Assembly: GCF_014174395.1 (NCBI RefSeq)
Contig: NZ_JABEQD010000002.1
Location: 186,001 to 250,000 of the forward strand
Length of the DNA: 64,000 nt
Direction of reading: 5' to 3'
Source of the DNA: Gluconacetobacter aggeris
GTDB lineage: Bacteria > Pseudomonadota > Alphaproteobacteria > Acetobacterales > Acetobacteraceae
Position 1 is the first letter of the stretch, and each line of letters begins with the position of its first letter. The notes below the pieces were generated by a model. The model did no database searches and was not told the origin of the DNA. It worked only from the letters and a program-made list of their open reading frames with translations. Position numbers and translations under genes: made by a program. Shown here piece by piece: positions 24,147 through 59,811 of the stretch.

Positions 24147-25753
24147 AAGGCCGCTTCAAGACTGCCGGCACGCCGCCCCGCAGGCGCCGCGCGTCCCTGC
24201 CCATATTAGCCGCCACCACGCTGCTGCTCGCCGGATGCGCCACCGCCGAACTGGCCACCGCTCCACCGCGTCCCGACCGGCCCTGGACCCCGGACGTGAC
24301 GGCGGCGGGCACCATCGTGCCGCCCGGCCACGGACAGCGCGGCCTGACGCTGCCGCCCGGATACACCCTGCCCGCCGACCCGGCGGTGGTAACGCGCGGC
24401 GCCTCCCCCACCCTGCCGGCACAAACGGCACATCCCTACACGCTGGCGGACCTCATCGACGCTGCGCAATCCGCCAACCCCCAGACCCGCCGCGCCTGGA
24501 ACACCGCGCGCGACGCGGCGCTGGCGGTCGGCATCGCCCGCAGCACCTACCTGCCGCACCTGACGGCCACCGTGGTCGGCGGCTGGTCGCACAGCCACGG
24601 CCAGACATCCGATGCATCGCTGGACACCGGCGGCGACGGCACGCTGCCGCTGGGCAACGGCCCCGGCACCCGCAATTCCGGCGCCGGCGAGGTGCAGACG
24701 CTGGGCCTGGAATGGCTGCTGTTCGATTTCGGCCGGCGCGCGGCCACCATCGCGGCCGCGCGCCAGGCCCAGATCGCCACCAATATCCTGTTCACGGCGG
24801 CACATCAGAAGGTGATCTATGCCGTCACCACCGCCTTCTACACCCACGCCGCCGCCACCGCCCGCGCACGATTGCTGCACACCGCCCTGGATAATGCGCG
24901 CCGCGTCCAGGCGGCGGCCGAGGCCCGGCTGCACCAGGGCCAGGGCACGATCGTCGATGTCACGCAGGCACGGCAGGCCACGGCGCAAGTCGTCCTCCGC
25001 CTGGTCCAGGCCGAAGGCGATGACGAAAACACCTATCTGACCCTGCTGGCCGCCACGGGCGTCTCCGCCGAAACCCGCATCGGGCTGGAAGACGTGTCGG
25101 GCCGCCCCCTGACCCAGGACGACGCCCGGCTGAGCGAGGACATGGTCAGGCGCGCGGTGGCCCGCCGCCCCGACGTACTGGCGGCCTATGCGGCAGCGCG
25201 CGCGGCCCACAGCCGCGTCAGCGCGGCACGCGACGCATTCCTGCCCAGCATCTTCATGACCGGCAACGTCTCCTACGCCACCGGCCGCATGAGCCTCACC
25301 TCGGTGCCCGGCATCGGCAGCGATTCCGCGCCGACGCTGAACCTGTCGGCCAACCGTTTCAGCAGCCTGGTGCTCGGCGGCATCAGCGTGCCGATCTTCG
25401 ATGGCGGCCTGCGCGCGGCGGTGGTCAAACAGGCGCAGGACCAGTCGGACAGCGCCGAGGCCACGCTGCGCGAAACGGTCAACGACGCCATCCAGCAGGT
25501 CGTGGCGGCGGAAAACGCCCTGCGCACCGGCCTGAACGCCTACGCCGCCGCAACCACGCTGCGCACGGCCGCCCGGACCAGCTTCGACGCCGCCCTGACC
25601 GCCTATCGCAGCGGCACCGGCTCGATCACCCAGACGCAACTGGCGCAGAACGGCCTGCTGGACGCCGATATCAGCCGCTCCGACGCCTATTACGCGACAT
25701 TGATCGCCGCCGCCGGGCTCGCCTTCGGCACCGGCGCACTCGGCGGGGCGTGA
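24143..25753 (+). CDS. mdtP: TolC-like outer-membrane efflux protein (MdtP-like)
   Basis: A 536-residue outer-membrane channel. The signal peptide ends with lipobox LAGC (LLLAGCATAE); the mature part starts with a Pro-rich linker, then two OEP repeats: LADLIDAAQSANPQTRRAWNTAR...LEWLLFDFGRRAATIAAA and VARRPDVLAAYAAARAAHSRV...ISVPIFDGGLRAAVV. The start overlaps the mdtO stop (ATGA). It closes the operon, giving a complete tripartite exporter. Its TGA stop lies in the base stem of a structured repeat element. Confidence 0.9.
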   Translation: MKGRFKTAGTPPRRRRASLPILAATTLLLAGCATAELATAPPRPDRPWTPDVTAAGTIVPPGHGQRGLTLPPGYTLPADPAVVTRGASPTLPAQTAHPYTLADLIDAAQSANPQTRRAWNTARDAALAVGIARSTYLPHLTATVVGGWSHSHGQTSDASLDTGGDGTLPLGNGPGTRNSGAGEVQTLGLEWLLFDFGRRAATIAAARQAQIATNILFTAAHQKVIYAVTTAFYTHAAATARARLLHTALDNARRVQAAAEARLHQGQGTIVDVTQARQATAQVVLRLVQAEGDDENTYLTLLAATGVSAETRIGLEDVSGRPLTQDDARLSEDMVRRAVARRPDVLAAYAAARAAHSRVSAARDAFLPSIFMTGNVSYATGRMSLTSVPGIGSDSAPTLNLSANRFSSLVLGGISVPIFDGGLRAAVVKQAQDQSDSAEATLRETVNDAIQQVVAAENALRTGLNAYAAATTLRTAARTSFDAALTAYRSGTGSITQTQLAQNGLLDADISRSDAYYATLIAAAGLAFGTGALGGA

Positions 25754-25902
25754 GCGGACAGGCGCGCTGGTGGCGATCCGACGCGCGCTTCCTCTGCTCC
25801 GATGCTCACGGCCGTCAAGGCCGCTCCGCTTCGGTGCTCGGAAACACACGACGGCCGTGCCGCTTCGCGGCACTCTCGCTCACCAGCCCACCTGTCCGCT
25901 CA
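25751..25902 (-). repeat. Structured dispersed element, copy A
   Basis: About 152 bp bounded by a perfect 12-bp inverted repeat (TGAGCGGACAGG / CCTGTCCGCTCA). The left arm contains the TGA stop codon of mdtP. Between the arms are two hairpins and a long-range stem shared with copies at 53263, 57827 and 59649, here in the opposite orientation on the plus strand. The interior is nearly identical to the copy at 59649, while the terminal arms differ, showing that the arms are not simply copied with the element. Confidence 0.85.
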
Positions 25903-26178
25903 CGCCCCCATCCACCGGACCGCGCGCGAACACAACTCGTGCGAATCATCCCAAAAATACATATTCAACATATTGTTATATAACATTTTTACACGATATT
26001 ATTATGACACTCAGTGCCATTTTTCACAAGGATGTGACCGCGCTCCCGATTGCCGGGCGTCCTCCCATCTATATAACACGGAATACAGCAACACGGACCA
26101 ACCCGGTCCTGTTTGATGTCCGGCTCCGTTTCCGGCCGCCTGTCGGATAGGGCCGTCGCAGTCCAAGGAGTGTCCGCA
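25903..26178 (+). promoter_or_regulatory. Promoter region of the aldehyde dehydrogenase gene
   Basis: This stretch is strongly AT-rich between 25950 and 26030, unlike the genes on both sides, and lies directly ahead of a single gene, so it is the probable promoter and leader. I could not fix -35 and -10 boxes with confidence. AAGGAG at 26165-26170 is the ribosome site of the gene. Confidence 0.5.
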
Positions 26179-27681
26179 ATGTCTGTCAACGAACAGCCGC
26201 CGTTCAAGGCACGCTACGAGAATTATATCGGTGGAGAGTGGGTGGCCCCGGTCAAGGGCGCCTACATGTCCAACATCACCCCCGTCGACGGAAGCGTGCT
26301 GTGCGAGGTCCCGCAATCCACCGCCGAGGATATCGAGCTGGCGCTGGATGCCGCCCACAAGGCGTTCAAGAGCTGGGCCCACACCTCCCCCGCCGACCGC
26401 TCGCTGATCCTGCTCAAGGCCGCCGACCGGATGGAGCAGAATCTCGACCTGCTGGCCCGCGCCGAAACCTGGGATAACGGCAAGCCGATCCGCGAGACGC
26501 TGAACGCCGACATCCCGCTGGCGATCGATCATTTCCGCTATTTCGCCGGCTGTATCCGCGCCCAGGAAGGCGCGCTGAGCGAGATCACCGACACCACCAT
26601 CGCCTATCATTTCCACGAGCCGCTGGGCGTGGTCGGCCAGATCATCCCCTGGAACTTCCCGCTGCTGATGGGCTCGTGGAAGCTGGCCCCCGCGCTGGCC
26701 GCCGGCAATTGCGTGGTCATGAAACCCGCCGAGACCACCCCCGCCAGCATCCTGGTGCTGATGGAACTGATCGGCGACCTGTTCCCGCCCGGCACGCTCA
26801 ACATCGTCAACGGCCTGGGCCGCGATGTCGGCGCCGCGCTGTCCAACAGCGACCGCATCGCCAAGATCGCCTTCACCGGTTCCACCCCCACCGGCAAGAT
26901 GATCGCCCACGCGGCCGCCGAGCACCTGATCCCGGCGACGCTGGAACTGGGCGGCAAGTCGCCGAACATCTTCTTCGCCGACGTCATGGACCATGACGAC
27001 GATTATCTGGACAAGGCCATCGAAGGCTTCGCCCTGTTCGCGCTGAACCAGGGCCAGATCTGCTCCTGCCCCAGCCGCGCGCTGGTGCACGAATCGATCT
27101 ACGAACGTTTCATCGAGCGCGCCCTTCCCCGCGTGAAGGCGATCAAGCAGGGCAACCCGCTGGACCCCACCACCATGATGGGCGCCCAGAACTCGCTGAT
27201 GCAGCAGCAGAAGATCCTGGACTATATCGACATCGGCAGGAACGAGGGCGCACAGCTCCTGACCGGCGGCGGCAAGCCGGATCTCGGTGCCGTGCTCAAG
27301 GAAGGCTTCTACGTCCAGCCCACCGTCTTCAAGGGCAACAACAAGATGCGGATCTTCCAGGAAGAGATCTTCGGCCCGGTGCTGGCCGTCACGACCTTCC
27401 GCACCGAGGAAGAGGCCCTCGCCATCGCCAACGATACCGAATTCGGCCTCGGTTCGGGCGTCTGGTCCCGCAACGCGAATACCTGCTACCGTATGGGACG
27501 CGGCATGGAAGCTGGACGTGTGTGGATCAACTGCTATCACGTCTATCCGGCTCACGCCGCCTTCGGCGGCTACAAGAAGTCGGGGATCGGTCGTGAAACG
27601 CACAAGATGGTGCTCGAACATTATCAGCAGACCAAGAATCTCCTGGTCAGCTATAGTGAAAAGAAGCTCGGCTTCTTCTGA
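26179..27681 (+). CDS. NAD-dependent aldehyde dehydrogenase (AldB-like)
   Basis: A 500-residue ALDH oxidising aldehydes to acids. The oxyanion Asn region is [15 protein letters not shown]; the NAD loop [11 protein letters not shown]; the catalytic Glu lies in LELGGKSPN (about residue 256); the nucleophile Cys in [16 protein letters not shown] (about residue 295), the AldB-type CSCPS/CTCPS pattern rather than the usual CxAGS. It closely resembles bacterial acetaldehyde and chloroacetaldehyde dehydrogenases of the AldB/ExaC group, so acetaldehyde from ethanol oxidation is a likely substrate in an acetic acid bacterium. ATG 26179 follows AAGGAG by 8 bases. A shortened structured repeat begins at its stop codon. 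Confidence 0.93.
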
Positions 27682-27747
27682 GAACCAGACCGGACATGCG
27701 CGCCGGTGGCGATCCGGCGCGCGTTTCCTGTGCTTCGGTCTGGTTCT
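27681..27747 (-). repeat. Structured dispersed element, copy E, internally deleted
   Basis: A 67-bp derivative of the same element, bounded by perfect 12-bp arms (AGAACCAGACCG / CGGTCTGGTTCT). The first base of the left arm is the A of the ALDH stop codon TGA. Inside, only one end of the element remains (GGTGGCGATCCGGCGCGC and GTTTCCTGTGCTTCGG); the middle hairpins are missing. As a hairpin behind a stop codon it may double as a terminator. Confidence 0.8.
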
Positions 27748-27824
27748 AAATCACGGGGGGTGCCGGATACGGCGCCCCTACCAACCCGGCAGGCCGCCGG
27801 ACCACCCGTGGCAACCCCTTGCAG

Positions 27825-29126
27825 ATGGACCCTGAAGACGCGATGGCGACAAAACCGGAAATTCTCATCGTAGGGGGCGGCGTCGCGGGGCTGGCTCTGG
27901 CCACCCGGCTGGGCGACACGCTGGGCCGGCAGGGTCAGGCCCGGATCACGCTGATCGACAAGAGCTTCTCCCATGTCTGGAAGCCCATGCTGCATTGTTT
28001 CGCGGCCGGCACGGCCCAGAACGAGAATGACCGCATCAGCTTCATGGCGCAGGCCAGCAGCCGCCATTTCGAATTCTGGCCCGGCGAGATCGTGGCGCTG
28101 GACCGCGCGAACAAGCGCGCCATCCTCGGCCCGTTCCGCTCCGCCGAGGGCGAGGTGGTGCTGGAAAGCCGTACGGTCGAATATGCCGCACTGGTGCTGG
28201 CCATCGGCAGCCGCGCCAATGATTTCGGCACGCGGGGCGTGGCGGAACATTGCCTGTTCATCGACAATCTGGTCGAAGCCAACAGCTTCAACGAAAAATT
28301 CCGCATGGAACTGCTGCGCGCCTACGCGGCCGACAAGCCGCTCGACATCGCCATTGTCGGCGGCGGCGCGACCGGCACGCAGCTCGCGGCCGAACTGCAC
28401 AAGGCGCTGGACCTGGTCGCCCTGCATTCCTTCGGCGCGGCGCCCCCGCAGCTCAAGATCACGCTGCTCGAAGCCGGTCCCCGCATTCTCCCCGCGTTCC
28501 CCGAAGCCGTGTCCACCGCAGCCCAGCGCCAGCTCGAGCGCATCGGCGTCTCGGTCCGCACCTCCGCCATGGTCTCCGGCGCCGATGCCGAAGGGCTGAG
28601 CCTGAAGGACGGCACGCGCATCCCCGCCACGCTGCGCGTCTGGGCCGCCGGCGTAAAGGCGCCGGACGTCACGTCGGCCTTCGACGGGCTCTCCCTCAGC
28701 CGCTCGGGCCAGATCCTGGTCCACCCCAACCTGCAATCGCAGGATGACGAGCATATCTTCGCCATGGGCGACTGCTCGTTCATCTCCGAAGATCCCCTGC
28801 CGCCCACGGCCCAGGTGGCCCGCCAGCAGGCCCACCATCTCGCCCGCCACCTGCCGGCCTGGCTGCGCAACGGAAGTGCCGTTCCCAACTGCGTCTTCCA
28901 CAACAAGGGCGCCATCGTGGCGCTGGGCAATTACAATGGCTGGGGCACCCTGCCCGGCGGCACCGTCTTCGGCGGCGGCTTCCTCAACGGCCTCACCGCA
29001 CGGCTCGGCCATCTGATGCTCTACCGCCAGCACCAGGTGGAACTGTACGGCCTGTTCCGCGGCCTGATGTCCATCCTGGCCGACCGGATCGATGCGTTCG
29101 TGCGTCCATCCGTGCGGCTGGATTAG
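27825..29126 (+). CDS. ndh: Type II NADH dehydrogenase (NDH-2)
   Basis: A 433-residue single-subunit NADH:quinone oxidoreductase of the membrane surface. The FAD loop is EILIVGGGVAGLALATRLG at the N-terminus and the NADH loop is DIAIVGGGATGTQLAAEL near residue 178; the FAD-binding C-terminal motif is HIFAMGDCSFI. The region AQVARQQAHHLARHL is the quinone-side Q-Q motif of NDH-2, and the C-terminus has the expected amphipathic membrane-binding segment. Start ATG 27825 or 27843; no strong ribosome site decides. NDH-2 is a main respiratory NADH enzyme in acetic acid bacteria. Confidence 0.91.
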   Translation: MDPEDAMATKPEILIVGGGVAGLALATRLGDTLGRQGQARITLIDKSFSHVWKPMLHCFAAGTAQNENDRISFMAQASSRHFEFWPGEIVALDRANKRAILGPFRSAEGEVVLESRTVEYAALVLAIGSRANDFGTRGVAEHCLFIDNLVEANSFNEKFRMELLRAYAADKPLDIAIVGGGATGTQLAAELHKALDLVALHSFGAAPPQLKITLLEAGPRILPAFPEAVSTAAQRQLERIGVSVRTSAMVSGADAEGLSLKDGTRIPATLRVWAAGVKAPDVTSAFDGLSLSRSGQILVHPNLQSQDDEHIFAMGDCSFISEDPLPPTAQVARQQAHHLARHLPAWLRNGSAVPNCVFHNKGAIVALGNYNGWGTLPGGTVFGGGFLNGLTARLGHLMLYRQHQVELYGLFRGLMSILADRIDAFVRPSVRLD

Positions 29127-29129
29127 CGA

Positions 29130-29777
29130 CTAGCCAGGCGGGGCCAGAAGCCCCGCCTGCAACGCCAGCACCTTGTGCAGGATCGGCACCAGCGCCGGGC
29201 GCCCCTTGAGCCTGATCCACTCATCCAGCGCGGTGCGAAAGGCCGCGATCCCCGATCGCGCGGCCACACGCGCCGCCAGCGCCTGATCGGGCGACGGCGG
29301 CAACCGGCTGGCCAAGGCGGCGGCCAGCGCATCCTCCCACCGCGCATATTTCCGCAGGCTGACCGACAGCAGCGCCGGCGTCCGCTCGATCAAGCAGACG
29401 AAGGCGTATGCCTCGGCCCGGTTCTTCGCCATCTGCGGCACCACGGCTTCCAGCGCCATGCGGATAATATCCTGCGGCGTGAAATCCGCCGGGCAGGATT
29501 CGACGCTGGCGGTCAGCACATCGGTCATGTTCTGCGCCCAGGCGGTCACGATATCCGCCTTGGTCGGAAAATACCGGAACAGCGTCCGGCGCGAAATGCC
29601 GGCGCTGGCCGCGATCTCATCGACCGTGGTGGTGTCGAACCCCTGGGTGGACAGCAGGCGCATCGCACCTTCGATCAGCGCGGCATGGGTCTCGCTCCGC
29701 CGGGCCTCCCGCCGGGACGGCGCGGAGGCGGAAGCGGCGACACGCAGGGAAGAAACCGGGGGCCGGGACACGGGCAA
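29130..29777 (-). CDS. TetR-family transcriptional regulator
   Basis: A regulator of roughly 215 residues. The helix-turn-helix is AALIEGAMRLLSTQGFDTTTVDEIAASAGISRRTLFRYFPTKADI, a standard TetR domain. The C-terminal part resembles the MftR-like group, with WAQNMTDVLTASVE. The start is uncertain: the frame is open far upstream, and TTG 29777 was picked because GAGAG lies 9-13 bases before it; GTG 29828 is an alternative. It converges with ndh, three bases apart, and a 10-bp inverted repeat lies within its last codons. Confidence 0.82.
   Translation of the reverse strand: MPVSRPPVSSLRVAASASAPSRREARRSETHAALIEGAMRLLSTQGFDTTTVDEIAASAGISRRTLFRYFPTKADIVTAWAQNMTDVLTASVESCPADFTPQDIIRMALEAVVPQMAKNRAEAYAFVCLIERTPALLSVSLRKYARWEDALAAALASRLPPSPDQALAARVAARSGIAAFRTALDEWIRLKGRPALVPILHKVLALQAGLLAPPG
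29135..29159. terminator. Stem-loop at the ndh/tetR convergence
   Basis: Perfect inverted repeat CAGGCGGGGC-(CAGAA)-GCCCCGCCTG that starts nine bases after the ndh stop codon and forms the last codons of the convergent tetR gene. No T-run follows on the plus strand, so it is at most a Rho-assisted or pausing hairpin. Confidence 0.5.
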
Positions 29778-30120
29778 GACAGGATCGCTCTCGAACAGGA
29801 CGGACCGGCGCACCGAACGGATCGGCACACCGAAAAAGGGGAAACCGGCAGGGTATCGGCCCACAAGACCGCCCCTCCCCGGCCGATGATAGTCGCGAAC
29901 GGCAAAAGCCTCCACCCTCGCCACCGCACCCCTTCCCGGCGACACAGACACACCGGAAAATGGCACTCACCATCCCGGCCCCGCATCGCCACGATGCGAA
30001 TATCCATGAAATTTCATTTTTAAATCAACGATGTTTACGAAAAACCCCCATACCGGGTTGCACCGCGCAGTGCCAACGGACGATAATGCGCCGAAAGAAA
30101 CAGCAGCGAGAGAAAAACGC

Positions 30121-30825
30121 ATGACGGGATATCCGATCCCCACCCACCTGAGCCCATCCGCCTTCCAGGCCGTCAAGGGCGTGATCTTCGACATGGACGG
30201 CCTGCTTCTGGACAGCGAAACCCTGGCGATGGACGCACTGGCCGAAGCCGGGACCGACCTGGGTTACGACGTCCCGCTCGCCTTCTGCCGCGGCATGATC
30301 GGCATGCCCGCCGATACCTGCCGCCAGATGGTGCACGACACGTACGGCACCGATTTCCCGCTGGAACGCTTCTTCGCGCTGCAGGAAGAGCATCTCCGCC
30401 GCTATGTCGACAGCGACCGCCTGGTGCTGAAAAAGGGCGTCATCCCCCTGCTGGACCTGCTCGACCGGCTGGCCCTGCCGCGCGCAATCGCCACCTCGTC
30501 CAGCCGCTACCGTACCGACCATCATCTGGAACTGGTCGGGCTCCTGACCCGCTTCGACGCCATCGTGACCCGCGACGACGTCACACGCGGCAAGCCGAAT
30601 CCCGAACCCTATTTGACGGCCGCGGAAAAAATCGGAATCGCCCCCGAAGCCTGCCTGGCATTGGAAGATTCCCACAACGGCGCCCGCGCCGCCCACGCCG
30701 CCGGCATCCCCGTCATCGTGGTGCCCGATCTCCTGGCCCCCACTGAGGACATCCACGAAAAGGCCCTGGCCATCGTCAACGATCTGGACCATGTCCGCCA
30801 CTGGCTGGAACAGGCCCACGCCTGA
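30121..30825 (+). CDS. HAD-superfamily phosphatase/phosphoglucomutase-like hydrolase
   Basis: A 234-residue HAD hydrolase, ATG 30121 behind GAGAG. Motif I is VIFDMDGLLLDSE (nucleophile Asp and acid Asp), motif II IATSSSRY, motif III K in TRGKPNPEPYL, and motif IV LALEDSHNGARAAHAAG. The cap domain is the alpha-helical type in residues 25-100. This is the subfamily of beta-phosphoglucomutase and sugar phosphatases such as YniC; the substrate cannot be assigned. Confidence 0.9.
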   Translation: MTGYPIPTHLSPSAFQAVKGVIFDMDGLLLDSETLAMDALAEAGTDLGYDVPLAFCRGMIGMPADTCRQMVHDTYGTDFPLERFFALQEEHLRRYVDSDRLVLKKGVIPLLDLLDRLALPRAIATSSSRYRTDHHLELVGLLTRFDAIVTRDDVTRGKPNPEPYLTAAEKIGIAPEACLALEDSHNGARAAHAAGIPVIVVPDLLAPTEDIHEKALAIVNDLDHVRHWLEQAHA

Positions 30826-31032
30826 ACGCCGGGCAAAAATGCACGCCGGGAGACCTCGGCGCGCATGTCCCGACACATTCCCCCAAAACCGGAGGAAGGG
30901 GCAACGCGCCCTTTCCTCCCGCCCACGATGTCCCTCACTTTAGCGATTACGCGTCGCCCGACATGGCCGCTTCCGCCTACTTTCCAGACGACAGATGCAA
31001 GCACATGCCTTCCCGACAGCGGACGCCCAATC

Positions 31033-32571: not shown

Positions 32572-32774
32572 AAGATACCGTCTCAACGAGAGTCGCCAAT
32601 CTGCATCAGGCATATTGCGGCAATCGCCATGCAGGAGTTACCGCACATTACCTTTCTGCAATTTTATTATGATTCATGTTTGAGAGCGGACAGTTCGTGG
32701 ATACCGTCGCCTCCAGAAACGTTACGGCGGCGGCGATATCGCGTCAACGCCCTCCAAGGAGACTGGCAACGTCA

Positions 32775-33749
32775 ATGGCACGCCCTTCTTTGTCCGGACG
32801 ATGGGGCCTCGGACTGACTCTTCTCGTGGGCATGACACAGACTGCGCTCGCCGAGGAGGTTCCTCCGGTTTCCCCCGCCGGGTTCGGCGTCTTTCAGCCG
32901 TTCTCCAGCGATCCGGGCTTTACTCTGAACGCCGCATTCACGCCGGATGGCAACACCGTCTACGTCTCCAAAAGCCAGCCGACATGGGATGGCTTGACCA
33001 TTTTCGCGGCGACGCAACAGCACGGCATATGGTCCGCCCCACAAGTCGCGCCGTTCTCCGGCGTGGACAAGGACACCGACCCGGCCGTGTCCCCTGACGG
33101 CACGTCGATCGTGTTCGCCTCGATCCGTCCCGCCACCGGGGCGGGCTATCGCTTGTATCGCTACGATTTCAAGGCCGGCCTGACCGCGCCGGCCCTGCCC
33201 GAGCCAGCTTCGGCGACCGACAATGACCTTTACCCGAGCTTTACCCGAACCGGCGTCCTGTATTTCATGAAGATGGGCACAACCGGAACGGCGATCTATC
33301 GCGCCTCGCCAGCCGGTCATGGGTTTGCAACGCCGTCGCCTATCGTCATCCCTGGCGCGGATAAAACGACCCACGACATGGATCCGACCATCGCGCCGGA
33401 CGAGAGCTTCATCGTCTTCGCCAGCAACCGTGCGGGCACGCTGGGCGCGAAGGATCTGTTCATCGCGTTCCGCACCACAACCGGCTGGTGTACGCCGTTG
33501 CATTTTGGTGCCCCGATCAACAGTACCGGCAACGAGGTCGCGACCGGTCTATCGCCGGATGGGCAGACATTATATTTCTCCACTGCCCGCTCAAGTGTCA
33601 CGACACCGCGCACAAAACCAGCCAACAGCATGGCTTTCCGCGTGGAACAGGCCAATTATGCCAACGGACTCCTGCGGCCCTACAAGGTGTCGATCGGCGC
33701 ATTCGTTGCGACGCACCGGCCAATCGGCGGTGTGTGCAGTCATCCATGA
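32775..33749 (+). CDS. Exported TolB/PD40-type beta-propeller protein
   Basis: A 324-residue protein, ATG 32775 with AGGAG about 12 bases upstream. The signal peptide ends ALAEE. The mature part has repeats of the WD40-like PD40 kind: FTPDGNTVYVSKSQ, VSPDGTSIVFASIRP, IAPDESFIVFASNRAG and LSPDGQTLYFSTARS, about 60-90 residues apart, which form propeller blades. Such domains bind ligands or protein partners in the periplasm. Its stop overlaps the region just before the next gene, so the two are probably co-expressed. Partner unknown. Confidence 0.78.
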   Translation: MARPSLSGRWGLGLTLLVGMTQTALAEEVPPVSPAGFGVFQPFSSDPGFTLNAAFTPDGNTVYVSKSQPTWDGLTIFAATQQHGIWSAPQVAPFSGVDKDTDPAVSPDGTSIVFASIRPATGAGYRLYRYDFKAGLTAPALPEPASATDNDLYPSFTRTGVLYFMKMGTTGTAIYRASPAGHGFATPSPIVIPGADKTTHDMDPTIAPDESFIVFASNRAGTLGAKDLFIAFRTTTGWCTPLHFGAPINSTGNEVATGLSPDGQTLYFSTARSSVTTPRTKPANSMAFRVEQANYANGLLRPYKVSIGAFVATHRPIGGVCSHP

Positions 33750-33805
33750 TGAAGCTGGTTCCCACCAAAGGCGCGCAAGGTGTCAGTCCCGCGAGGAAAA
33801 AGCGC

Positions 33806-35698: not shown

Positions 35699-35767
35699 TA
35701 GTCTCTTGGCACAAGACAGATGGATTTCAATCCGATACCAGACATTCGACTTTTTTGTCCATGTCTG

Positions 35768-51543: not shown

Positions 51544-51632
51544 CGCCCGGCCGGCCCCTCTCTCAATCCAGCAGAACCCGCCCCGCATGTCCTGCCCGAT
51601 TCTGCATTGACCTCAACCAAGCTTGAGATTTT

Positions 51633-53177
51633 ATGACCGACACCGGCACGCCCAGGCAAGCCCCGCGCCAGGACACTCCCCGCGGCACCCGGAAGGCACC
51701 ATTCATGCGTTCTGACACCCCGTCGCGATCATCCCCCGCCCATGCCGCCGAGGCACGGCCGGCCCACACCGCGACCGGCTGGGCGGCCCTTTTTTCCGGC
51801 GGCAACGCGGCGCGCTCCATCACCCTCTCGGCCGGCGTCGTGCTGCACGCCATCAATCTCTACATGGCCATGACCGTGCTGCCCTCAGCGGTGCGCGATA
51901 TCGGCGGCATGCGCTATTACACGTGGAACACCTCGCTGTTCGTCGCCGCCTCGATCGTCGGCTCGTCGCTGTCGGCGCGCGCACTTGGTCGTTTCGGCCC
52001 CCGCACCGCCTACGCAATCGCGGTCGCCATCTTCGCTACCGGCGCCGTGCTGTGCGCCACCGCTCCCGCCATGCCGGCGATGCTGGCCGGGCGCGTGATG
52101 CAGGGGGTCGGCTCCGGCCTGCTGGTTTCGATGGCCTATGCCGTCATCCGGCTGGTCTTCCCGCCCGGCCTGTGGCCACGGGCGATGAGCATGCTGTCCT
52201 CGATGTGGGGCGTCGCGACGCTGATCGGGCCGGCCATCGGCGGCCTGTTCGCGGGGCTGGGCGTCTGGCGCGCCGCCTTCTGGACGCTGGCGGCGCTGTC
52301 GATCCCGTTCGCTGTGCTCGCCACCTGCGTGCTGCCGCGCACCACCGGCGCCGAAGCCGGCAGCTTCCCCGGCATCGCCTGGCGGCAGATCGCGCTGATG
52401 GTCGGCTCGGTGCTGTGCCTGGCGGTGGCCGGCGCCAGCCCGCATGGATGGGAAAACCTGGCCGGATGCCTGATCGTGCTGGGCCTGTTCGCCTGCCTCG
52501 CCCATCTCGAACGGCAGGGCGGCACGCGCCTGCTGCCCGCCCGCGCGCTGGTCTGGGGCTCCAGCCTGGCCCCCTTATACGCCCTGATGGGCTGCCTGGC
52601 CCTGACCGTGGAAGTGATCGAGATCTTCGCGCCGCTCTTCCTGCAGGATCTGCACCGCCAGTCCCCGCTCACCGCCGGCTATCTGTCGGTACTGATGGCC
52701 GCCGGCTGGTCCACCGGCTCGATCCTCAATGCCGGCGCCCCACCAGCCCGCGTCGCACGCGCCCTGGTCGCCGCCCCCGCGCTGGGGCTGGCCGGCATTC
52801 TCTTCCTGGCCTTCTATCTGTCCGTGCCCACCGATGGCACGTGGCAGGCGATGGCGCCCGTCTGCGTCACGTTCCTGATGGTGGGCCTGGGCGTCGGCAC
52901 GGCGTGGCCGCATCTGCTGACGCGCGTATTGCTCACCGCCCAGCCCGCCGACCGCGACCTGGCTTCGGCCTCCCTGACCACAGTGCAGCTCTACACCACG
53001 GCACTGGCCGGCGCCTGGGCCGGCATGATCGCCAACATTGCCGGCCTGGCAGACCCTGGCGGCATGGTGGGGGCCGAAAGGGCAGCATTCTGGGTGTTCG
53101 CGCTGTTCGCGATCATGCCGGCCATGGGTATTCTGACAGGATGTTCTTTTTTGAAAAAAAGAACCAAAAAACTCTGA
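51633..53177 (+). CDS. MFS drug-efflux transporter (DHA2/EmrB-like)
   Basis: A 514-residue multidrug transporter with about fourteen hydrophobic segments. The motif-A loop GRFGPRTAYAIAV and the motif-C region GRVMQGVGSGLLVSMAYAVI...GPAIGGLFAG are visible. The 45-residue N-terminal extension is Pro/Ser/Thr-rich; ATG 51705 is an alternative start. The C-terminus CSFLKKRTKKL is encoded by an oligo-T/oligo-A palindrome (53144-53163), so the protein ends in repeat sequence. It is a single gene; no adaptor adjoins it. Substrate unknown. Confidence 0.88.
   Translation: MTDTGTPRQAPRQDTPRGTRKAPFMRSDTPSRSSPAHAAEARPAHTATGWAALFSGGNAARSITLSAGVVLHAINLYMAMTVLPSAVRDIGGMRYYTWNTSLFVAASIVGSSLSARALGRFGPRTAYAIAVAIFATGAVLCATAPAMPAMLAGRVMQGVGSGLLVSMAYAVIRLVFPPGLWPRAMSMLSSMWGVATLIGPAIGGLFAGLGVWRAAFWTLAALSIPFAVLATCVLPRTTGAEAGSFPGIAWRQIALMVGSVLCLAVAGASPHGWENLAGCLIVLGLFACLAHLERQGGTRLLPARALVWGSSLAPLYALMGCLALTVEVIEIFAPLFLQDLHRQSPLTAGYLSVLMAAGWSTGSILNAGAPPARVARALVAAPALGLAGILFLAFYLSVPTDGTWQAMAPVCVTFLMVGLGVGTAWPHLLTRVLLTAQPADRDLASASLTTVQLYTTALAGAWAGMIANIAGLADPGGMVGAERAAFWVFALFAIMPAMGILTGCSFLKKRTKKL
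53144..53163. repeat. Oligo-T/oligo-A palindrome, copy 3, at the 3' end of the MFS gene
   Basis: TTCTTTTTTGAAAAAAAGAA followed by CCAAAAAACTC. The copy lies within the last codons of the transporter gene and resembles those at 20925 and 21017. The pairing stem plus T-run could terminate transcription in both directions. Confidence 0.65.
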
Positions 53178-53227
53178 TTCGTTCAGGAGTTTTTTTGCTG
53201 GGGACACACAATGTCCCAAAACAGGGA

Positions 53228-53262
53228 AAGGCGCTCCATCTCACGATGGAGCGCCCCTTTTC
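53228..53262 (+). terminator. Intrinsic terminator after the MFS gene
   Basis: Perfect 11-bp arms GGCGCTCCATC / GATGGAGCGCC (53230-53240 and 53245-53255), loop TCAC, followed by CCTTTT. A shorter hairpin GGGACA / TGTCCC lies just before it at 53201-53217. It sits right beside the structured repeat that starts at 53263. Confidence 0.85.
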
Positions 53263-53428
53263 AGAGCCTGACCGGAAATGTGGGCTGGTGAGCGAGAGCG
53301 GCCCGGAACGGGCCGCGCCCGTCGTGTGTTTCCGAACACCGGAGCGGAGCGGCCTTATCGGCCGTGAGCACCGGAGCACAGGAAACGCGCGCCGGATCGC
53401 CACCAGCGCGCATTTACGGTCGGGCTCT
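53263..53428 (+). repeat. Structured dispersed element, copy B
   Basis: About 166 bp bounded by 20-base complementary arms (53263-53282 with 53409-53428); the only imperfections are one G.A and two U.G pairs when read on the plus strand. The last base is the A of the rhlE stop codon TGA (minus strand). The internal hairpin CGGCCCG-GAA-CGGGCCG (53299-53315) replaces GTGCCGC-GAA-GCGGCAC of copies A and F while keeping the pairing. Confidence 0.87.
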
Positions 53429-54702
53429 CAGGCAACGCGACGCGGAGCGCCACGATGCTGCCCGCCGCCCGAGCGGGACTGGTTGCGGCCACCGCCGCCA
53501 CCCCCACGGCCCCGGCCACCGCCGCCGCCCAATACCGGCGGGCGCATGGTCGATTTCTCGGCCGCCTCGGAATGGTACGGATGCTCCATCACCACCGGGA
53601 TCGGCTTGCCGATCGCCTTTTCGATGTCGCGCAGCCACGCCCGCTGCTCGGCATCGCACAGCGACACCGCCCAGCCCTCACGCCCGGCGCGGGCCGTACG
53701 GCCGATCCGGTGGACATAGCTCTCCGGCACGTTGGGCAGGTCGTAGTTGAAGACGTGCGTGACGTCATCGACATCGATGCCGCGCGCCGCAATGTCGGTC
53801 GCCACCAGCACCTTGACGGCACCGGAGCGGAAGCCCGACATCGCCCGCTCGCGCGCGCCCTGCGACTTGTTGCCATGGATCGCCTCGGCCACAATGCCGT
53901 GGTCGTTCAGGAAGGCGGCGACCTTGTTGGCCTCATGCTTCATCAGCGTGAACACCACGGCGCGCTCGACCTTGGGCGAGTCCACCAGCATCTGCAGCGC
54001 GTCACGCTTCTTGTCGGTATCGACGAACATCACCGCCTGACGGATACGGTCGACGGTGCTGGACGGCGGCGTGACCTGCACGGTCGCGGGGTCGCGCAGC
54101 AGGCCGTGCGCCAGCTCGGCAATGCTGCGCGGCATGGTGGCCGAGAACAGCAGCGTCTGCCGGTCGCGCGGCAGTTCGGCCACGATCCGGCGGATGTCGC
54201 GGACAAAGCCCATGTCCAGCATCCGGTCGGCCTCGTCCAGAACCAGCACTTCCAGCCCGGACAGGTCGATATGGCCCTGGCCCATCAGGTCCAGCAGGCG
54301 GCCGGGGGCGGCAACCAGCACGTCAACGCCACGGCGCATCGCCTCGACCTGCCGGCCCTGGCCGACACCGCCGAAGATCACGGCATGGCTCAGGCGCATA
54401 TGGCGGGCATAGGCCTTGAAGCTCTCATCGATCTGCGACGCCAGCTCGCGCGTTGGCGCCAGAACCAGCACGCGCGCGCCCTTGGGGGCGGCACGGCGGT
54501 GATGGGTCAGCAGCCGATGCAGGATCGGCAGCGCGAAGGCCGCCGTCTTGCCGGTGCCCGTCTGCGCCAGGCCCAGCAGGTCCCGCCCGGCCAGCAGGTG
54601 CGGGATGGCCCCGGCCTGGATGGGGGTCGGGGTGGTATATCCTTCCTCGTTCAGCGCGCGCAGCAACGGCTCGGCAAGCTGAAGGTCGGCAAAAGTCGTC
54701 AT
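53428..54702 (-). CDS. rhlE: DEAD-box RNA helicase (RhlE-like)
   Basis: A 424-residue RNA helicase. Motifs in order: Q motif (YTTPTPIQAGAIP), I AQTGTGKT, Ia PTRELASQI, Ib APGRLLDL, II VLDEADRM, III FSATMP, IV VVFTLMKHEA, V ATDIAARGIDV, VI HRIGRTARAG. The C-terminal tail is Gly/Arg-rich (GGGGGRGRGGGGGGRNQSRSGGGQHRG), typical of RhlE and useful for RNA binding. The start ATG 54702 gives MTTFADLQLAEPLL. Its stop codon is part of the base stem of element copy B. Role: remodelling of rRNA and mRNA structure, often in cold conditions. Confidence 0.91.
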   Translation of the reverse strand: MTTFADLQLAEPLLRALNEEGYTTPTPIQAGAIPHLLAGRDLLGLAQTGTGKTAAFALPILHRLLTHHRRAAPKGARVLVLAPTRELASQIDESFKAYARHMRLSHAVIFGGVGQGRQVEAMRRGVDVLVAAPGRLLDLMGQGHIDLSGLEVLVLDEADRMLDMGFVRDIRRIVAELPRDRQTLLFSATMPRSIAELAHGLLRDPATVQVTPPSSTVDRIRQAVMFVDTDKKRDALQMLVDSPKVERAVVFTLMKHEANKVAAFLNDHGIVAEAIHGNKSQGARERAMSGFRSGAVKVLVATDIAARGIDVDDVTHVFNYDLPNVPESYVHRIGRTARAGREGWAVSLCDAEQRAWLRDIEKAIGKPIPVVMEHPYHSEAAEKSTMRPPVLGGGGGRGRGGGGGGRNQSRSGGGQHRGAPRRVA

Positions 54703-54981
54703 GAAATGAAGCGCCTCCGGGCACTCGGCAATGGCCGGATTCCTCACGACAGGATGAGCATCCGGAAAGACTTGAAAGGAAAACACGACGCACGGTTCGC
54801 GCCCCTGCCTGGCAGGGCACGCTGTCATTCACCGTAATCCGTGGGTCAGAAAGGGTCTCTTGTCCGTCCAGTCCGTGCCCCCCGCATCAATAAGGCACGC
54901 GCGTACAAGTCCAGATACGGGACAGGCGGGGACCGTCCACGGGCGAGGCTTCTACCCGCATGCGCTCCCCACCGCAAGTCC

Positions 54982-55899
54982 TTATTCCGGCTGGCTGTCT
55001 CCGGGCGCCTCCGGGGCGGCCTCATGCAGCCGCCGCGCCAGCAGCATCGCGCCGTCGATCGCATGGCCCCTCGGCACCGACAGGCCGGCCTGCGCACCGG
55101 CGGAAAGATAAGGCAGCAGCACCGGCGCCAGCCCGCCCAGCAGGCAGCAGGGCAACGCCCCGAAACCGTCCGCCGCGCGCAGGGCGGCCAGCAGCGCCTC
55201 GACCTCCGCCCCGGCACGGGCCAGCAGCCCCCGCGCCTGCGCGTCGCCCTGCTCCGCCAGCGCGCAGACCAGCGGCGTCACCCGGGCGAAATCGGCAGCC
55301 CGCGCGCCAACCGCCCACAGCATCGGCTCCGCCCCCTCATCCGCCAGCCGCGCGCGCACCGCCTCGCTCAACAGCGTGGGCCGCGCCCGGCCGTCGCCCG
55401 CGCGCAGCATCAGCCGGACGGCCTCCAGCCCGATCCAGGCCCCGCCGCCCTCATCCCCCTGCGGAAAGCCCCAGCCCCCGACCCGCCGGGTGGTTCCGCC
55501 GGCAATGGCCAGTCCCACCATCCCGGTTCCGGCCGCGATCATGGCCCCGTCATCGCCCGCATGGGCCCCGACGCAGGACGTATAGGCATCCGAGACGATA
55601 TCGAGGCGCGCAAACAGCGCCGGCCTGGCCAGGAACCGCGCCACGGCCCCGCTCACCTCGGCCCCCGCCAGCCCAGCCACGGCAACCAGCCGGCATGCCG
55701 CACCCGACAGCCCCGCCCGCGACAGCGCCAGTTCCAGCGCCTGACGGATCGACTCCCATGCCTGCCCGGCATCGGTGGCGATATTGGCGGGCCCGCCCTC
55801 CCCTTCGGCCAGCAGAACACCCTCCGGCGTCACCAGCCGCAGGCGCGTCCGCGTCCCACCCCCGTCGATCCCGACCAGAACGGCAGGGCCGCCCGTCAC
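54982..55899 (-). CDS. BadF/BcrA-type sugar kinase (N-acetylglucosamine kinase-like)
   Basis: A 305-residue ASKHA-fold kinase. The phosphate-1 motif is LVGIDGGGTRTRLRLV, the catalytic region SDAYTSCVGAH, the phosphate-2 motif GAMIAAGTGMVGLAIAGG, and the adenosine motif CLLGGLAPVLLPYL. GWGFPQGDEGGGAWIGLEAVR is the signature of the GlcNAc-kinase branch of the family. The likely role is phosphorylation of an amino sugar from peptidoglycan recycling, by family. It lies 30 bases after metW in the same direction, so may be co-transcribed with metX-metW, an unrelated pathway. Confidence 0.87.
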   Translation of the reverse strand: MTGGPAVLVGIDGGGTRTRLRLVTPEGVLLAEGEGGPANIATDAGQAWESIRQALELALSRAGLSGAACRLVAVAGLAGAEVSGAVARFLARPALFARLDIVSDAYTSCVGAHAGDDGAMIAAGTGMVGLAIAGGTTRRVGGWGFPQGDEGGGAWIGLEAVRLMLRAGDGRARPTLLSEAVRARLADEGAEPMLWAVGARAADFARVTPLVCALAEQGDAQARGLLARAGAEVEALLAALRAADGFGALPCCLLGGLAPVLLPYLSAGAQAGLSVPRGHAIDGAMLLARRLHEAAPEAPGDSQPE

Positions 55900-55929
55900 G
55901 ACAGGTCCGTCAGCGTCTGTAGCAACAGC

Positions 55930-56524
55930 TCAATGTCCCCGGCGGCGTAATAGGAACAGCGCCTGCTCGCCGAACAGATTGGCCAGCCGGATGGAGCGGC
56001 GCCAGGGCGCGCGCTCGCCATCCTCATCCACCGCCATCCACTGCTCGACCACATACCCTTCCTCGCGGCACAGCATCAGGAAGTCGAGGATCGTGCATGG
56101 ATGGATGTTCGGCGTCTGGTACCACGGCGTATGCCACACCGCCGTCATCGGCATGCGCCCGCTCGTCAGCAGCTTCAGCCGCAATTGCCAGTGGCCGAAA
56201 TTGGGAAACGAGACGATGGCATGCCGCCCGATCCGCAGCATCTGCCGCAGCACCTCGCGCGGCCGCTCGACCGCCTGCAAGGTACGCTGCAACACCACAT
56301 AATCGAACGCCTCGTCGGGATAATGCGCCAGGTCATGGTCGGCATCGCCATGCATCACCGGCAGGCCGTGGGCGACCGAGCGCGTGACCTCGCGCATGTC
56401 GATCTCGATCCCCCGCGCATCGCAGCCACGGGTGCGGAACAGGTAATCCAGCAACGTCCCGTCACCGCTGCCGATGTCGAGCACCCGCGTGCCGGGACGG
56501 ATCATGTCGGCAATCAGCCGCTGG

Positions 56525-56535
<11 letters not shown>
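55930..56535 (-). CDS. metW: Methionine biosynthesis protein MetW
   Basis: A 201-residue methyltransferase-fold protein. SAM-site motif [15 protein letters not shown] near residues 18-32, [12 protein letters not shown], and the MetW-specific [44 protein letters not shown]...[10 protein letters not shown]. MetW associates with MetX in proteobacteria that acylate homoserine, and activates it. The start overlaps the metX stop by 11 bases, confirming the pair as an operon. Confidence 0.95.
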
Positions 56536-57709
<1,174 letters not shown>

Positions 57710-57826
57710 TCCGTCATGAACGATTGCAGGGCGCGGGCAACATCCCCGTCACGGTCGATCGTCCTATGGCACCGGCGCCGAACACACGCAACAGGAGGCT
57801 GCGCCCAAACCTATTATCCCATGCGC

Positions 57827-57991
57827 AGAGGCTGTTGCAAAAGCTCCGATGGTGAGCGGAAGCGTGGCGCCAGCCACGCGTCTGGCGGTGGTTTTTGAGC
57901 ATCGGAGCGGAGCGGCCTTGATGGCCGTGAGCACCGAAGCGCAGGAAACCGCCGTCAGGCCGCCGCCAGCGGGGCTTTTGCAGCAGCCTCT
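57827..57991 (+). repeat. Structured dispersed element, copy D
   Basis: About 165 bp with 22-base complementary arms (57827-57848 with 57970-57991), two U.G pairs on the plus strand and otherwise perfect. Divergent from the other copies but with the same architecture: hairpin GTGGC-GCCA-GCCAC, hairpin CGGCC...GGCCG, and a long-range stem joining GGCGGT to ACCGCC. It is the only copy not touching a stop codon; it sits between the divergent metX and OsmC genes. Confidence 0.85.
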
Positions 57992-58082
57992 TTCACCGGA
58001 TCGTGTGCGCCCTGCCGGGTCCCTCCCACGCGGCACCGCGTTATGGTCGGGCACTCCGCCAACCATCGAAGGAACCGACGCC

Positions 58083-58514
58083 ATGACCATCAAGAAATTC
58101 GGCACTGCCCACTGGGAAGGCGGCCTGAAGGACGGCAAGGGCACCGTTTCAACAGAAAGCGGTGCATTGTCCGGCCTGCCCTACGGCTTCAACACCCGCT
58201 TCGAAGGCGTGGCCGGCACCAACCCCGAGGAACTGATCGGCGCATCCCATGCCGCCTGCTTCGCCATGGCCCTGTCGGGCATCCTCGGCGGCGCCGGCCT
58301 CACCGCCACCGCGCTGGACGCCAAATCGGTCATCTCGCTGGAGAAGCAGCCCGACGGCTTCGCGGTCACCGCCGCCCACCTGACCCTCACGGCCACCATC
58401 CCCGGCGCAACCGAGGAACAGTTCCAAGATCTCGCCGCCAAGGCCAAGGCCGGCTGCCCGATCTCCAAACTGCTCAAGGCCGACATCACGCTGGAAGCAA
58501 CCCTGAACGCCTGA
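58083..58514 (+). CDS. OsmC-family peroxiredoxin
   Basis: A 143-residue OsmC/Ohr-fold protein with ATG 58083 behind GAAGGA. The two redox cysteines appear as GASHAACFAMALSGIL (first Cys) and KAKAGCPISKLLKADI (second Cys), the OsmC spacing. MTIKKFGTAHWEGGLKDGKGTVSTESGAL is the typical N-terminal strand pair. It reduces organic hydroperoxides using dihydrolipoamide or similar thiols. It is divergent from metX with element copy D in between, which could lie in its leader. Confidence 0.91.
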   Translation: MTIKKFGTAHWEGGLKDGKGTVSTESGALSGLPYGFNTRFEGVAGTNPEELIGASHAACFAMALSGILGGAGLTATALDAKSVISLEKQPDGFAVTAAHLTLTATIPGATEEQFQDLAAKAKAGCPISKLLKADITLEATLNA

Positions 58515-58519
58515 TCCTC

Positions 58520-59608
58520 TCAGACCGGGCGCGGATCGTGCCCGGTCTGTCCTCTGTGACGCAGCAGATGATCGGCCAGCACACACGCCATCATCGCCTC
58601 GCCAACCGGCACCGCGCGGATGCCCACGCACGGATCATGCCGCCCGCGCGTCGAAACATCGACATTCTCCCCACTCCGAGTCACCGAGGGAACGGGCGTG
58701 AGAATCGAACTGGTCGGCTTCACCGCAAACCGCGCCACCAGCGGCTGGCCGGTGGAAATCCCGCCCAGCACACCGCCGGCATGATTGGCGCCGAAGACCA
58801 GCCGCCCGTCTTCCATCCGCATCGGGTCGGCATTTTCCTCGCCGGTCAGGGCAGCGGCGGCAAACCCGTCGCCGATCTCGACCCCCTTCACGGCATTGAT
58901 GCTCATCAGCGCCATCGCCAGGTCGGAATCGAGCTTGCCGTAAATCGGCGCCCCCAGCCCCGGCGGCACGCCCTCAGCCACGATCTCGACCACCGCACCG
59001 ACAGAAGACCCGGCCTTGCGCACGGCGCCCAGATACTCTTCCCACACCGGCACCATCTCCGGATCGGGGCAGAAGAACGGATTGTCCCCAACCGTATCCC
59101 AGTCCCAGCGCGCCCGGTCGACCTCATGCGTGCCGATCTTCACCAGCGCCCCGCGAATACGCACCCCCGCGCCAAGCACCTGCCGCGCCACGGCACCCGC
59201 CGCCACCCGCATCGCGGTCTCGCGGGCCGAAGACCGTCCCCCGCCGCGATAGTCGCGAATGCCATATTTCAGGTCGTAGGCCACATCGGCATGGCCGGGC
59301 CGATAGCGCTCGGCGATATCGCCATAATCGCGCGACCGCTGGTCCACATTGCGAATCAGCAGCGCGATCGGGGTGCCGGTCGTCTGTCCCTCGAACACGC
59401 CGGACAGGATCTCGACGGAATCGGGCTCCTGCCGCTGGGTGGTGAATTTCGACTGGCCGGGCCGCCGCTGGTCCAGCCAGGGCTGGATATCGGCCTCGGA
59501 CAGCGCAATGCGCGGCGGGCAGCCATCGACCACACAGCCAATCGCCGGCCCATGACTCTCCCCCCAGGTCGTCACCCGGAACAGATGCCCGAAACTGTTA
59601 TCCGACAT
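58520..59608 (-). CDS. aroC: Chorismate synthase AroC
   Basis: A 362-residue FMN-dependent enzyme converting EPSP to chorismate, the last shared step of aromatic amino acid synthesis. Signatures: [19 protein letters not shown] at the N-terminus, the middle [20 protein letters not shown] and the C-terminal [19 protein letters not shown]. Length is normal. It ends five bases from the stop of the convergent OsmC gene. The fabI gene ends 200 bases upstream on the same strand; element copy F lies between them. Confidence 0.96.
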
Positions 59609-59648
59609 ATCCAGATAATCCCTTCACTTGGGGGGCCAGCCTATCCGT

Positions 59649-59811
59649 AAAACCTGATCGGAAATGTGGGCTGGTGAGCGAGAGTGCCGCGAAGCGGCAC
59701 GGCCGTCGTGTGTTTCCGAGCACCGAAGCGGAGCGACCTCCAGGTCGTGAGCATCGGAGCACAGGAAACGCGCGCCGGATCGCCACCAGCGCGCATTTAC
59801 GGTCAGGTTTT
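59649..59811 (+). repeat. Structured dispersed element, copy F
   Basis: About 163 bp. The terminal arms pair (AAAACCTGA at 59649-59657 with TCAGGTTTT at 59803-59811, continuing inward with two U.G pairs and one G.A). The right end is the A of the fabI stop codon TGA (minus strand). Hairpins: GTGCCGC-GAA-GCGGCAC at 59684-59700 and CGACCT-CC-AGGTCG at 59734-59747, the latter a compensated version of CGGCC...GGCCG in the other copies. Confidence 0.88.

What the first reader, a model, noticed from the sequence alone, without database searches (positions are those of the whole stretch)
25751..59811. A family of structured dispersed elements with five copies in this window
Copies lie at 25751-25902, 27681-27747, 53263-53428, 57827-57991 and 59649-59811, all intergenic. 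Four are full length (about 150-166 bp) and one is internally deleted. The fold is shared: complementary terminal arms, hairpin 1 (GTGCCGC-GAA-GCGGCAC, CGGCCCG-GAA-CGGGCCG or GTGGC-GCCA-GCCAC), hairpin 2 (CGACCT...AGGTCG or CGGCC...GGCCG), and a long-range stem such as GTGTTTCC with GGAAACGC. Stem sequences change together while pairing is kept, which shows selection on structure or a hairpin-dependent replication mechanism. I know of no named family with this pattern.
Basis: partly seen in the sequence, partly recalled or inferred. Interest (0 to 1): 0.85.

Follow-up and report, generated by a model that had tools for sequence, protein, structure and literature searches.

The report
Stop-codon-hugging mobile hairpin element
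The five repeats belong to a family, for which I found no name, of tiny mobile DNA elements seen in many Alphaproteobacteria; they carry no gene of their own, often lie directly behind a gene's stop codon, nearly always in one orientation there, and contain a conserved RNA-like folded core.

Summary
Four of the five copies are among 81 covariance-model matches in this genome (the 67-bp copy 2 is not). The family occurs in all 13 congeners searched, 25 of 102 Acetobacteraceae genera and 13 other alphaproteobacterial families. The fold is real (35 of 63 pairs with double changes, 15.0 in shuffles). It moves as a small non-autonomous transposon: two clean empty sites show a 3-bp TCA duplication, and its ends (TNA|GAG...CTC|TNA) resemble those of DUF4096 insertion sequences in related genomes. 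So the outer arms are terminal inverted repeats. Two features are odd for a MITE: a folded core kept across a class, with wobbles mostly on one strand (35 GU, 6 AC); and placement, the right end at the stop codon of an opposing gene in 44 of 81 copies, the left end in 3, with orientation skewed only for such copies (49:3 against 8:11). A CTNAG target explains part of this. No named family found. Transposase and core function are inferred.

The parts
25745..25908 (-). copy 1, full length; its lower end overlaps the last 9 nt of the + gene ending at 25753 (outer membrane efflux protein)
   Evidence: covariance model match C2:211745-211908, gene calls, Pfam OEP
27681..27747 (-). copy 2, shortened form (67 bp); begins at the last base of the stop codon of the + gene 26179-27681 (aldehyde dehydrogenase family)
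   Evidence: sequence and fold, gene calls, Pfam; not listed by the model
53263..53428 (+). copy 3, full length; TCA at 53261-53263 and 53428-53430 as target duplication, the right one being the stop codon (TGA) of the minus-strand DEAD-box helicase gene 53428-54666
53264..53427 (+). element proper of copy 3; its two ends are the terminal inverted repeats GAGCCTGACCGG... / ...CGGTCGGGCTC (outer stem P1, about 18 bp each side)
   Evidence: alignment and pairs
53298..53316 (+). copy 3 hairpin P3 (approximate limits)
53319..53395 (+). copy 3 long stem P4 with the conserved apex (family form GAGCACCGGAGCGGAGCGGCC ... GGCCGTGAGCACCGGAGC), approximate limits
57827..57991 (+). copy 4, full length, different arm type (GAGGCTGTTGCAAAAGC); between divergent genes, not at a stop codon
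59649..59811 (+). copy 5, full length; right end overlaps by 1 nt the stop codon of the minus-strand gene 59811-60710 (enoyl-ACP reductase / short-chain dehydrogenase family)

Best explanation
A miniature inverted-repeat transposable element (MITE) family. Shown: it inserts with duplication of 3 bp (TCA, of the TNA pattern) at two clean sites; it ends in GAG...CTC inverted repeats like those of DUF4096 insertion sequences of 864-930 bp in related genomes; it carries a folded core of about 100 nt kept over Alphaproteobacteria. Inferred: an IS5-family (IS1031-type) transposase moves it in trans; the preferred target is C-TNA-G. In these GC-rich genomes about a third of the CTNAG sites outside coding sequence or at its end are stop codons (CTGAG and the like), so many insertions can land flush behind a gene without damage. 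Inferred: flush copies are then kept almost only in the orientation in which the upstream gene's transcript carries the weaker-folding strand, because the other strand, which folds with G-U pairs and a conserved purine-rich apex, is either harmful right behind a stop codon or is the element's own functional RNA. Flush copies keep their outer stem better than others.
For: Empty/filled sites with one against two TCA: C1:443928 and C6:206323, each empty in both G003 and G007. TNA outside the ends on the left in 23 of 81 and on the right in 37 of 81, background 3.6%; left TNA in 12 of the 24 copies nearest the consensus against 3 and 4 of 24 in the other thirds (72 copies of at least 110 bp). Six of 61 scanned IS loci have GAG repeats with identical TNA duplications, 0 in 5 shuffles of each locus. 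A 16-nt identity between the arm of L350 and the repeat of IS locus L306, from two genera. Stop-codon contact: right end 44 of 81, left end 3 of 81; 40 further copies from 8 other genera: 22 right, 1 both, 2 left, 14 generic, 1 with the stop inside the arm. C before the stop in 40 of 44 against 75 of 153 genes without the element, p=6e-9; stop codons are 23 of 69 non-disruptive CTNAG sites in the sampled loci. The sense strand folds more weakly than the flipped one in 36 of 36 own and 22 of 23 other flush copies. Arms match each other better in flush than in other copies (15.4 against 13.2 of 17, p=0.0065).
Against: No IS with the majority arm (GAGCCTGACCGGAAATG) was seen among the loci fetched from this genome (9 PF01609 loci and 4 of 5 PF13340 hits). 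Three of ten other genomes with the element have no PF13340 hit, and no matching IS was seen in the loci of the other seven; other IS5-type families were not searched there. Identical 3-bp flanks (9 of 81) do not exceed shuffled pairs (mean 7.1, p=0.23), because TCA dominates both sides, so proof of the duplication rests on two clean sites. The third presence/absence pair (F, G004/G012) has 28 extra nt on the left and no clean duplication. Conservation of the inner fold over a class is not expected of an ordinary short-lived MITE. A palindromic target cannot by itself fix the orientation. Over the first 40 nt behind the stop the own copies are more stable in the actual orientation (28 of 36). 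The placement rests on my gene calls or open frames, not on annotation.
Confidence: 0.72

Rival explanations
1. REP/BIME-type repeat spread by a RAYT (Y1 HUH) transposase on single-stranded DNA.
For: Many palindromic intergenic copies, some in tandem, close to stop codons; one end abuts a short motif; [quoted passage not shown]
Against: Y1_Tnp (PF01797) found in 0 of 7 genomes that carry the element, while the control search rang in 5 of 14 known genomes. A 3-bp target duplication at two clean sites does not fit. Full units are about 160 bp, not 20-40 bp. CGTC repeats are reported missing from Acetobacteraceae (PMC3733652, passage).
Confidence: 0.04
2. Host element first: a terminator or mRNA 3'-end element kept and shaped by selection for gene expression, that only occasionally moves (an ERIC-like role).
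For: Immediate position behind stop codons in many genera; arms at the same site change on both sides together between species; flush copies keep arms better. Orientation-dependent effects on upstream transcripts are described for ERIC (PMC2229807, passage), and reduced translation with ribosome stalling for REPs within 15 nt of a stop codon (PMC12306157, passages).
Against: The full sense strand is the weaker fold; many sites are empty in congeners. For most other genes in the window the best nearby stem does not start at the stop codon.
Confidence: 0.3
3. The paired changes in the stems come from hairpin-templated correction (template switching in quasi-palindromes) rather than from selection.
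For: Arms at one site differ wholesale between genomes whose neighbouring gene ends are 95-98% identical, yet stay complementary (s40, s44); a deletion plus small local inversion in an arm between G004 and G012.
Against: Correction should not favour one strand, but G-U cells exceed A-C cells (35 against 6; 98 against 48) and four further pairs are mostly G-U; unpaired letters of the apex are conserved across the class. Wholesale change at s40 and s44 can also be replacement by another copy.
Confidence: 0.15
4. A retro-element: a structured + strand RNA reverse transcribed from a nick behind the stop codon.
For: One end and one orientation at the target; RNA-like strand bias.
Against: Inverted repeats at both ends and a 3-bp duplication. 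Reverse transcriptases were not searched and truncation of the left end was not measured.
Confidence: 0.05

Closest known systems
IS5-family insertion sequences of the IS1031 type (DUF4096 transposases) and MITEs derived from them
   Same: GAG...CTC ends and TNA 3-bp duplications, as in loci L306, L310, L314, L319, L321, L327
   Different: no room for a transposase gene; an inner folded core kept over a class; majority arms not identical to any IS seen here; the group name and its TNA rule are recalled, not from a call
ERIC / YPAL (RU-1, RU-2) elements of enterobacteria
   Same: structured non-coding mobile repeats of 100-170 bp; orientation of ERIC matters for upstream transcripts (PMC2229807, passages)
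   Different: duplication type, sequence, taxonomic range; no contact with the stop codon is described in the passages I saw
REP/BIME with RAYT
   Same: palindromic, intergenic, often close to stop codons
   Different: no Y1 transposase found, three-way fold of about 160 nt, target duplication
CIR repeats of Caulobacter
   Same: alphaproteobacterial intergenic repeats with 5'-end to 3'-end pairing (PMC2229807, passage)
   Different: not compared by sequence here

Membership tests
MITE (non-autonomous DNA transposon) | terminal inverted repeats | tested here: met
   outer arms of about 18 bp
MITE (non-autonomous DNA transposon) | target site duplication at insertion | tested here: met
   TCA at two clean empty/filled sites; TNA enrichment; identical flanks not above shuffles
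MITE (non-autonomous DNA transposon) | many dispersed copies, presence/absence between relatives | tested here: met
MITE (non-autonomous DNA transposon) | no transposase gene inside | tested here: inconclusive
   matches are 59-170 bp, too short for one; no explicit coding test of the element was run and no longer version was looked for
IS5 family, IS1031-type MITE | TNA duplication and GAG ends | tested here: met
   some copies have other heads such as GTTTGTG
IS5 family, IS1031-type MITE | an autonomous IS with near-identical repeats in the same genome | tested here: inconclusive
   similar head only (GAGGCTGTTTGAAAAGCC in L295/L307 of this genome, against GAGGCTGTTGCAAAAGC of copy 4); the 16-nt match L306/L350 is between two genera
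IS5 family, IS1031-type MITE | movement by that transposase | not testable with these tools
   needs a transposition assay
REP/BIME with RAYT | Y1 transposase in the genome | tested here: not met
   0 of 7 genomes
ERIC | 127-bp unit with TA duplication | tested here: not met
   length and TCA duplication; the ERIC definition is partly recalled
any Rfam 15 family | score above the gathering threshold | tested here: not met
   window, gathering: only a tRNA elsewhere; 4 loci, E<=1: microRNA and IRES family matches below their thresholds, one of them over the element of L337

The most novel reading that the evidence does not exclude
The element is a vehicle for an ancient structured RNA: its + strand, antisense to the gene it sits behind, is a functional RNA with a conserved purine-rich apex (GAG/TGA loop, A-A mismatches) that takes part in its own transposition or target choice at stop codons. 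It would be a transposon that aims at translation stops with an RNA of fixed polarity.
Probability: 0.2. Interest if true: 0.93.

Novelty: new variant of a known kind. Interest (0 to 1): 0.74.

Why it matters
MITEs are, as I know them, lineage-bound and their insides are not conserved. Here one inner fold is kept over Alphaproteobacteria whose sampled DNA runs from 40 to 72% GC while most stems have been rewritten, and the element repeatedly ends up flush with stop codons in one polarity. That makes it a natural experiment on what may stand directly behind a stop codon, a source of ready-made 3' ends for genes, and possibly an unrecognised kind of transposon-borne RNA. The covariance models made here could be rebuilt and used to annotate it.

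Tried and rejected
Rfam at gathering and relaxed thresholds: nothing of use. Phage records: no match; plasmids: one weak 59-nt match to the P4 apex in a Phyllobacterium plasmid. RAYT/IS200: not found in 7 genomes. Idea that it sits inside pre-existing terminator hairpins: set aside, because the empty sites show no such hairpin by eye and for most other genes of the window the best nearby stem does not start at the stop. My interim idea of insertion without duplication: dropped. DDE_Tnp_1 loci of this genome as autonomous partner: no pair of GAG repeats found. The single genome-contig scan was badly aimed: a helicase with relatives all over; only four Acetobacteraceae loci came back, none with a model match. 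In the IS loci of seven further genomes no repeats matching the local elements were found. Literature: searches are the ten searches; I saw no paper describing this element in the listings, and three core words occur in 0 papers. The genus is not named by any search; Gluconacetobacter is my guess from recalled lengths of the two G. diazotrophicus PAl 5 chromosomes, which the passages searched in two papers did not confirm. Self-cleavage of the core, promoters and reverse transcriptases were not tested.

Limits of the counts: model searches scored only part of the first-look candidates (150 of 6261, 14 per genome, 7 per genome), so absence in a genome is weak evidence. One search used the 56 best of 80 aligned rows, another the 17 best of 19; model R2 was built from all 19, of which one is a weak second match and one a reverse-strand match. 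One search used 56 of the 81 copies (matches under 110 bp, some tandem ones and the least consensus-like were dropped); of the places it listed I read 16 loci at 10 sites: 7 sites empty or nearly so, 1 filled, 2 unclear. The 40 copies were picked from the listed matches and are not a random sample. In the orientation test, copies with the stop inside the right arm (9 of the 49) were counted as flush; none of the left-hand cases qualified for that class. Gene calls come from a codon model trained on the window, and one search uses open frames only.
Full report
What was checked. Oriented by the hairpin GTGCCGC...GCGGCAC, copies 1 and 2 are on the minus strand; copies 3, 4 and 5 on the plus strand. 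Copies 1, 3, 4 and 5 align over their whole length; copy 2 keeps only the ends and the right inner part.

How many. A blastn search of the window's own assembly with copy 5 gave 52 matches, with 40 of 169 candidates scored. A covariance model (R1, 29 copies) gave 81 matches at E<=1e-3 with 150 of 6261 candidates scored: 59 of at least 150 nt, 14 of 100-149 nt, 8 shorter. Copy 2 is not in that list. All 13 congeners examined have the family (20 of 40 genomes in all, own included). In 200 Acetobacteraceae genomes, 38 genomes and 25 of 102 genera have matches at E<=1e-6. A second model, R2, made from loci of 15 other genera and one of this genus, found it in 14 genomes of 13 other alphaproteobacterial families, besides the own genome, among 385 genomes at E<=1e-5. 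The 23 loci read there come from DNA of 40-72% GC and keep the fold while most stems are rewritten.

Is the structure real. On 29 copies, 97.1% of cells are paired against 87.9% in shuffles, 35 of 63 pairs have changes on both sides against 15.0, and slid structures give 10-16. The structure was predicted from the same sequences, so percentages lean its way. Over 17 sequences from 16 genera (own genus included) there are 953 Watson-Crick cells, 69 G-U and 6 A-C; leaving out the three pairs dominated by G-U it is 35 to 6. In 56 own copies the figures are 98 to 48 outside four pairs that are mostly G-U (161 to 4 in those). A-C cells on this strand would be G-U on the other, so the plus strand is the one kept foldable. 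The alignments were fitted to the model, cells are not independent events, and a strand-biased mutation process could give part of this. A purine-rich apex (GAGCACCGGAGCGGAGCGG / GTGAGCACCGGAGC in the family), including unpaired letters, is recognisable in the most distant sequences too.

How it moves. Joined flanks of 56 of the 81 copies were searched in two close congeners, and 16 loci at 10 sites were read. Two sites are clean. At C1:443928 both relatives read ...GATGTCTCAGATGAATTG where this genome reads ...GATGTCTCA|GAGCC...GGCTT|TCAGATG; at C6:206323 both read ...CTTTCAGAAG against ...CTTTCA|GAGCC...GGCTC|TCAGAAG. So insertion duplicates TCA. Five more sites (C2:396901, C16:52161, C4:264378, C1:426277, C1:142493) look empty or nearly so in at least one relative, with 2 to 25 other letters between the aligned flanks; these are less certain. 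One site was filled and two were unclear. A further pair, G004 empty and G012 filled beside a TAA stop, has 28 extra nt on the left and no clean duplication. Over all 81 copies the three letters outside the ends are TNA on the left in 23 and on the right in 37, background 3.6%; identical triplets on both sides (9) are not above shuffles (mean 7.1), because TCA dominates. DUF4096 insertion sequences in G001, G004 and G014 have the same form of end, for example TTA|GAGCCCGATCCGAAAGTT...GGGCTC|TTA (6 of 61 loci scanned, 0 in 5 shuffles of each). The arm of L350 and the repeat of IS locus L306, from two genera, share 16 letters. Assignment to the IS1031 group of IS5 is from memory of the IS literature. 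No IS with the majority arm was seen among the loci fetched from this genome. The Y1 transposase of REP elements was found in 0 of 7 genomes.

Where it sits. With codon-model gene calls, the right end lies within -3..+2 nt of the stop codon of a gene on the opposite strand in 44 of 81 copies, the left end in 3 of 81. In 40 copies from 8 other genera, 22 are flush on the right (window -4..+4), 1 on both sides, 2 on the left, 14 generic and 1 has the stop inside the arm. In the 17 loci, 11 are flush on the right by the same window and none on the left. In 23 loci of other families, 11 have a right-hand open frame of at least 150 aa ending at -4..0 and 1 has such a frame on the left. Orthologous empty sites have a stop codon at the same place (read by eye), so the gene's own stop is the target.

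Why the stop codon. The base before the stop is C in 40 of 44 flush genes against 75 of 153 others (p=6e-9), and in the sampled loci 23 of 69 non-disruptive CTNAG sites are stop codons (6 of 17 in the window). So a C-TNA-G target alone would put about a third of harmless insertions at stop codons; the observed share is higher. Among the seven empty or nearly empty sites, three are flush, all with the right end, three are generic and one has the stop inside the arm. In genus g59, of six copies with near-perfect ends (L387-389, 391, 393, 394) two are flush. This fits retention better than strict targeting, on small numbers. But in this genome the copies nearest the consensus are not less often flush (15 of 24) than expected from retention, being close to the middle third (17 of 24), and the most diverged third is flush least often (9 of 24), which does not speak for retention.

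Why one orientation. Among copies between co-directional genes, flush ones (9 with the stop inside the arm included) are 49 right to 3 left, generic ones 8 to 11 (counts; Fisher p=7e-6). A palindromic target cannot do this. In the favoured orientation the upstream mRNA carries the weaker fold over the full element: 36 of 36 own and 22 of 23 other flush copies. Over the first 40 nt the own copies go the other way (28 of 36 more stable in the actual orientation; 8 of 23 in other genera). Selection against the strong fold next to a terminating ribosome is one reading; stalling by REPs within 15 nt of a stop codon is reported (PMC12306157, passages). The other reading is that the plus strand is the element's own RNA.

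Arms at one site. At s40, s41, s43, s44, s46, s02 and s53 the arms differ between species, mostly with matching changes on both sides; at s44 two unlike arm pairs occur, both flush. Flush copies match themselves better than others (15.4 against 13.2 of 17, p=0.0065; 72 copies). At s46 G006 has a short form with nearly the same arms.

What it is called. No Rfam family. The papers seen describe REP, ERIC, YPAL, RUP, CIR and other repeats; I saw passages of PMC3733652, PMC12306157, PMC2229807, PMC2765452 and PMC3035290 and search listings otherwise. In ten library searches I saw none describing this element; most subscription papers are not in that library.

Verdict. A new MITE family of known type in its ends, unusual in its conserved folded core and in its polarity at stop codons. 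Shown: family, fold, strand bias, 3-bp duplication at two sites, stop contact, orientation. Inferred: transposase, target rule, reason for the orientation, any RNA function.

Noticed in passing
G000 C20:34489-34984 and C2:270354-270836 (loci L042, L275): Head-to-tail arrays of the element: three copies at about 168-bp spacing in the first, two and a partial one in the second.
   Followed up: no
locus L287 (G012) about 2293-3343: A 1.05-kb insertion absent in G004 with ends GAGCGTGATGATTT / AAATCATCACGCTC and TA on both sides; looks like an IS630-type element (name recalled).
   Followed up: partly
loci L282 and L283 from about 1644: G004 and G012 differ in one arm by a 23-nt deletion plus a short local inversion, perhaps a trace of hairpin-mediated rearrangement.
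   Followed up: no
locus L375 (Phyllobacterium zundukense plasmid NZ_CP104971.1) 1501-1560: A piece 80% identical to 59 nt around the P4 apex, between an antitoxin gene and metH; possible Hyphomicrobiales relative.
   Followed up: partly
loci L345, L350 and L352-L374: Two Acetobacteraceae copies of 144-145 nt lack hairpin P3; 22 of 23 copies from other families are 141-148 nt long and one is 122.
   Followed up: partly
loci L207 and L214 (near contig ends of G007): Cut-off element copies followed by a repeated stretch ACATGACCGCAATCGCTCC... towards the contig end; another repeat or an assembly effect.
   Followed up: no
window 16420-16491: A tRNA gene on the plus strand.
   Followed up: no
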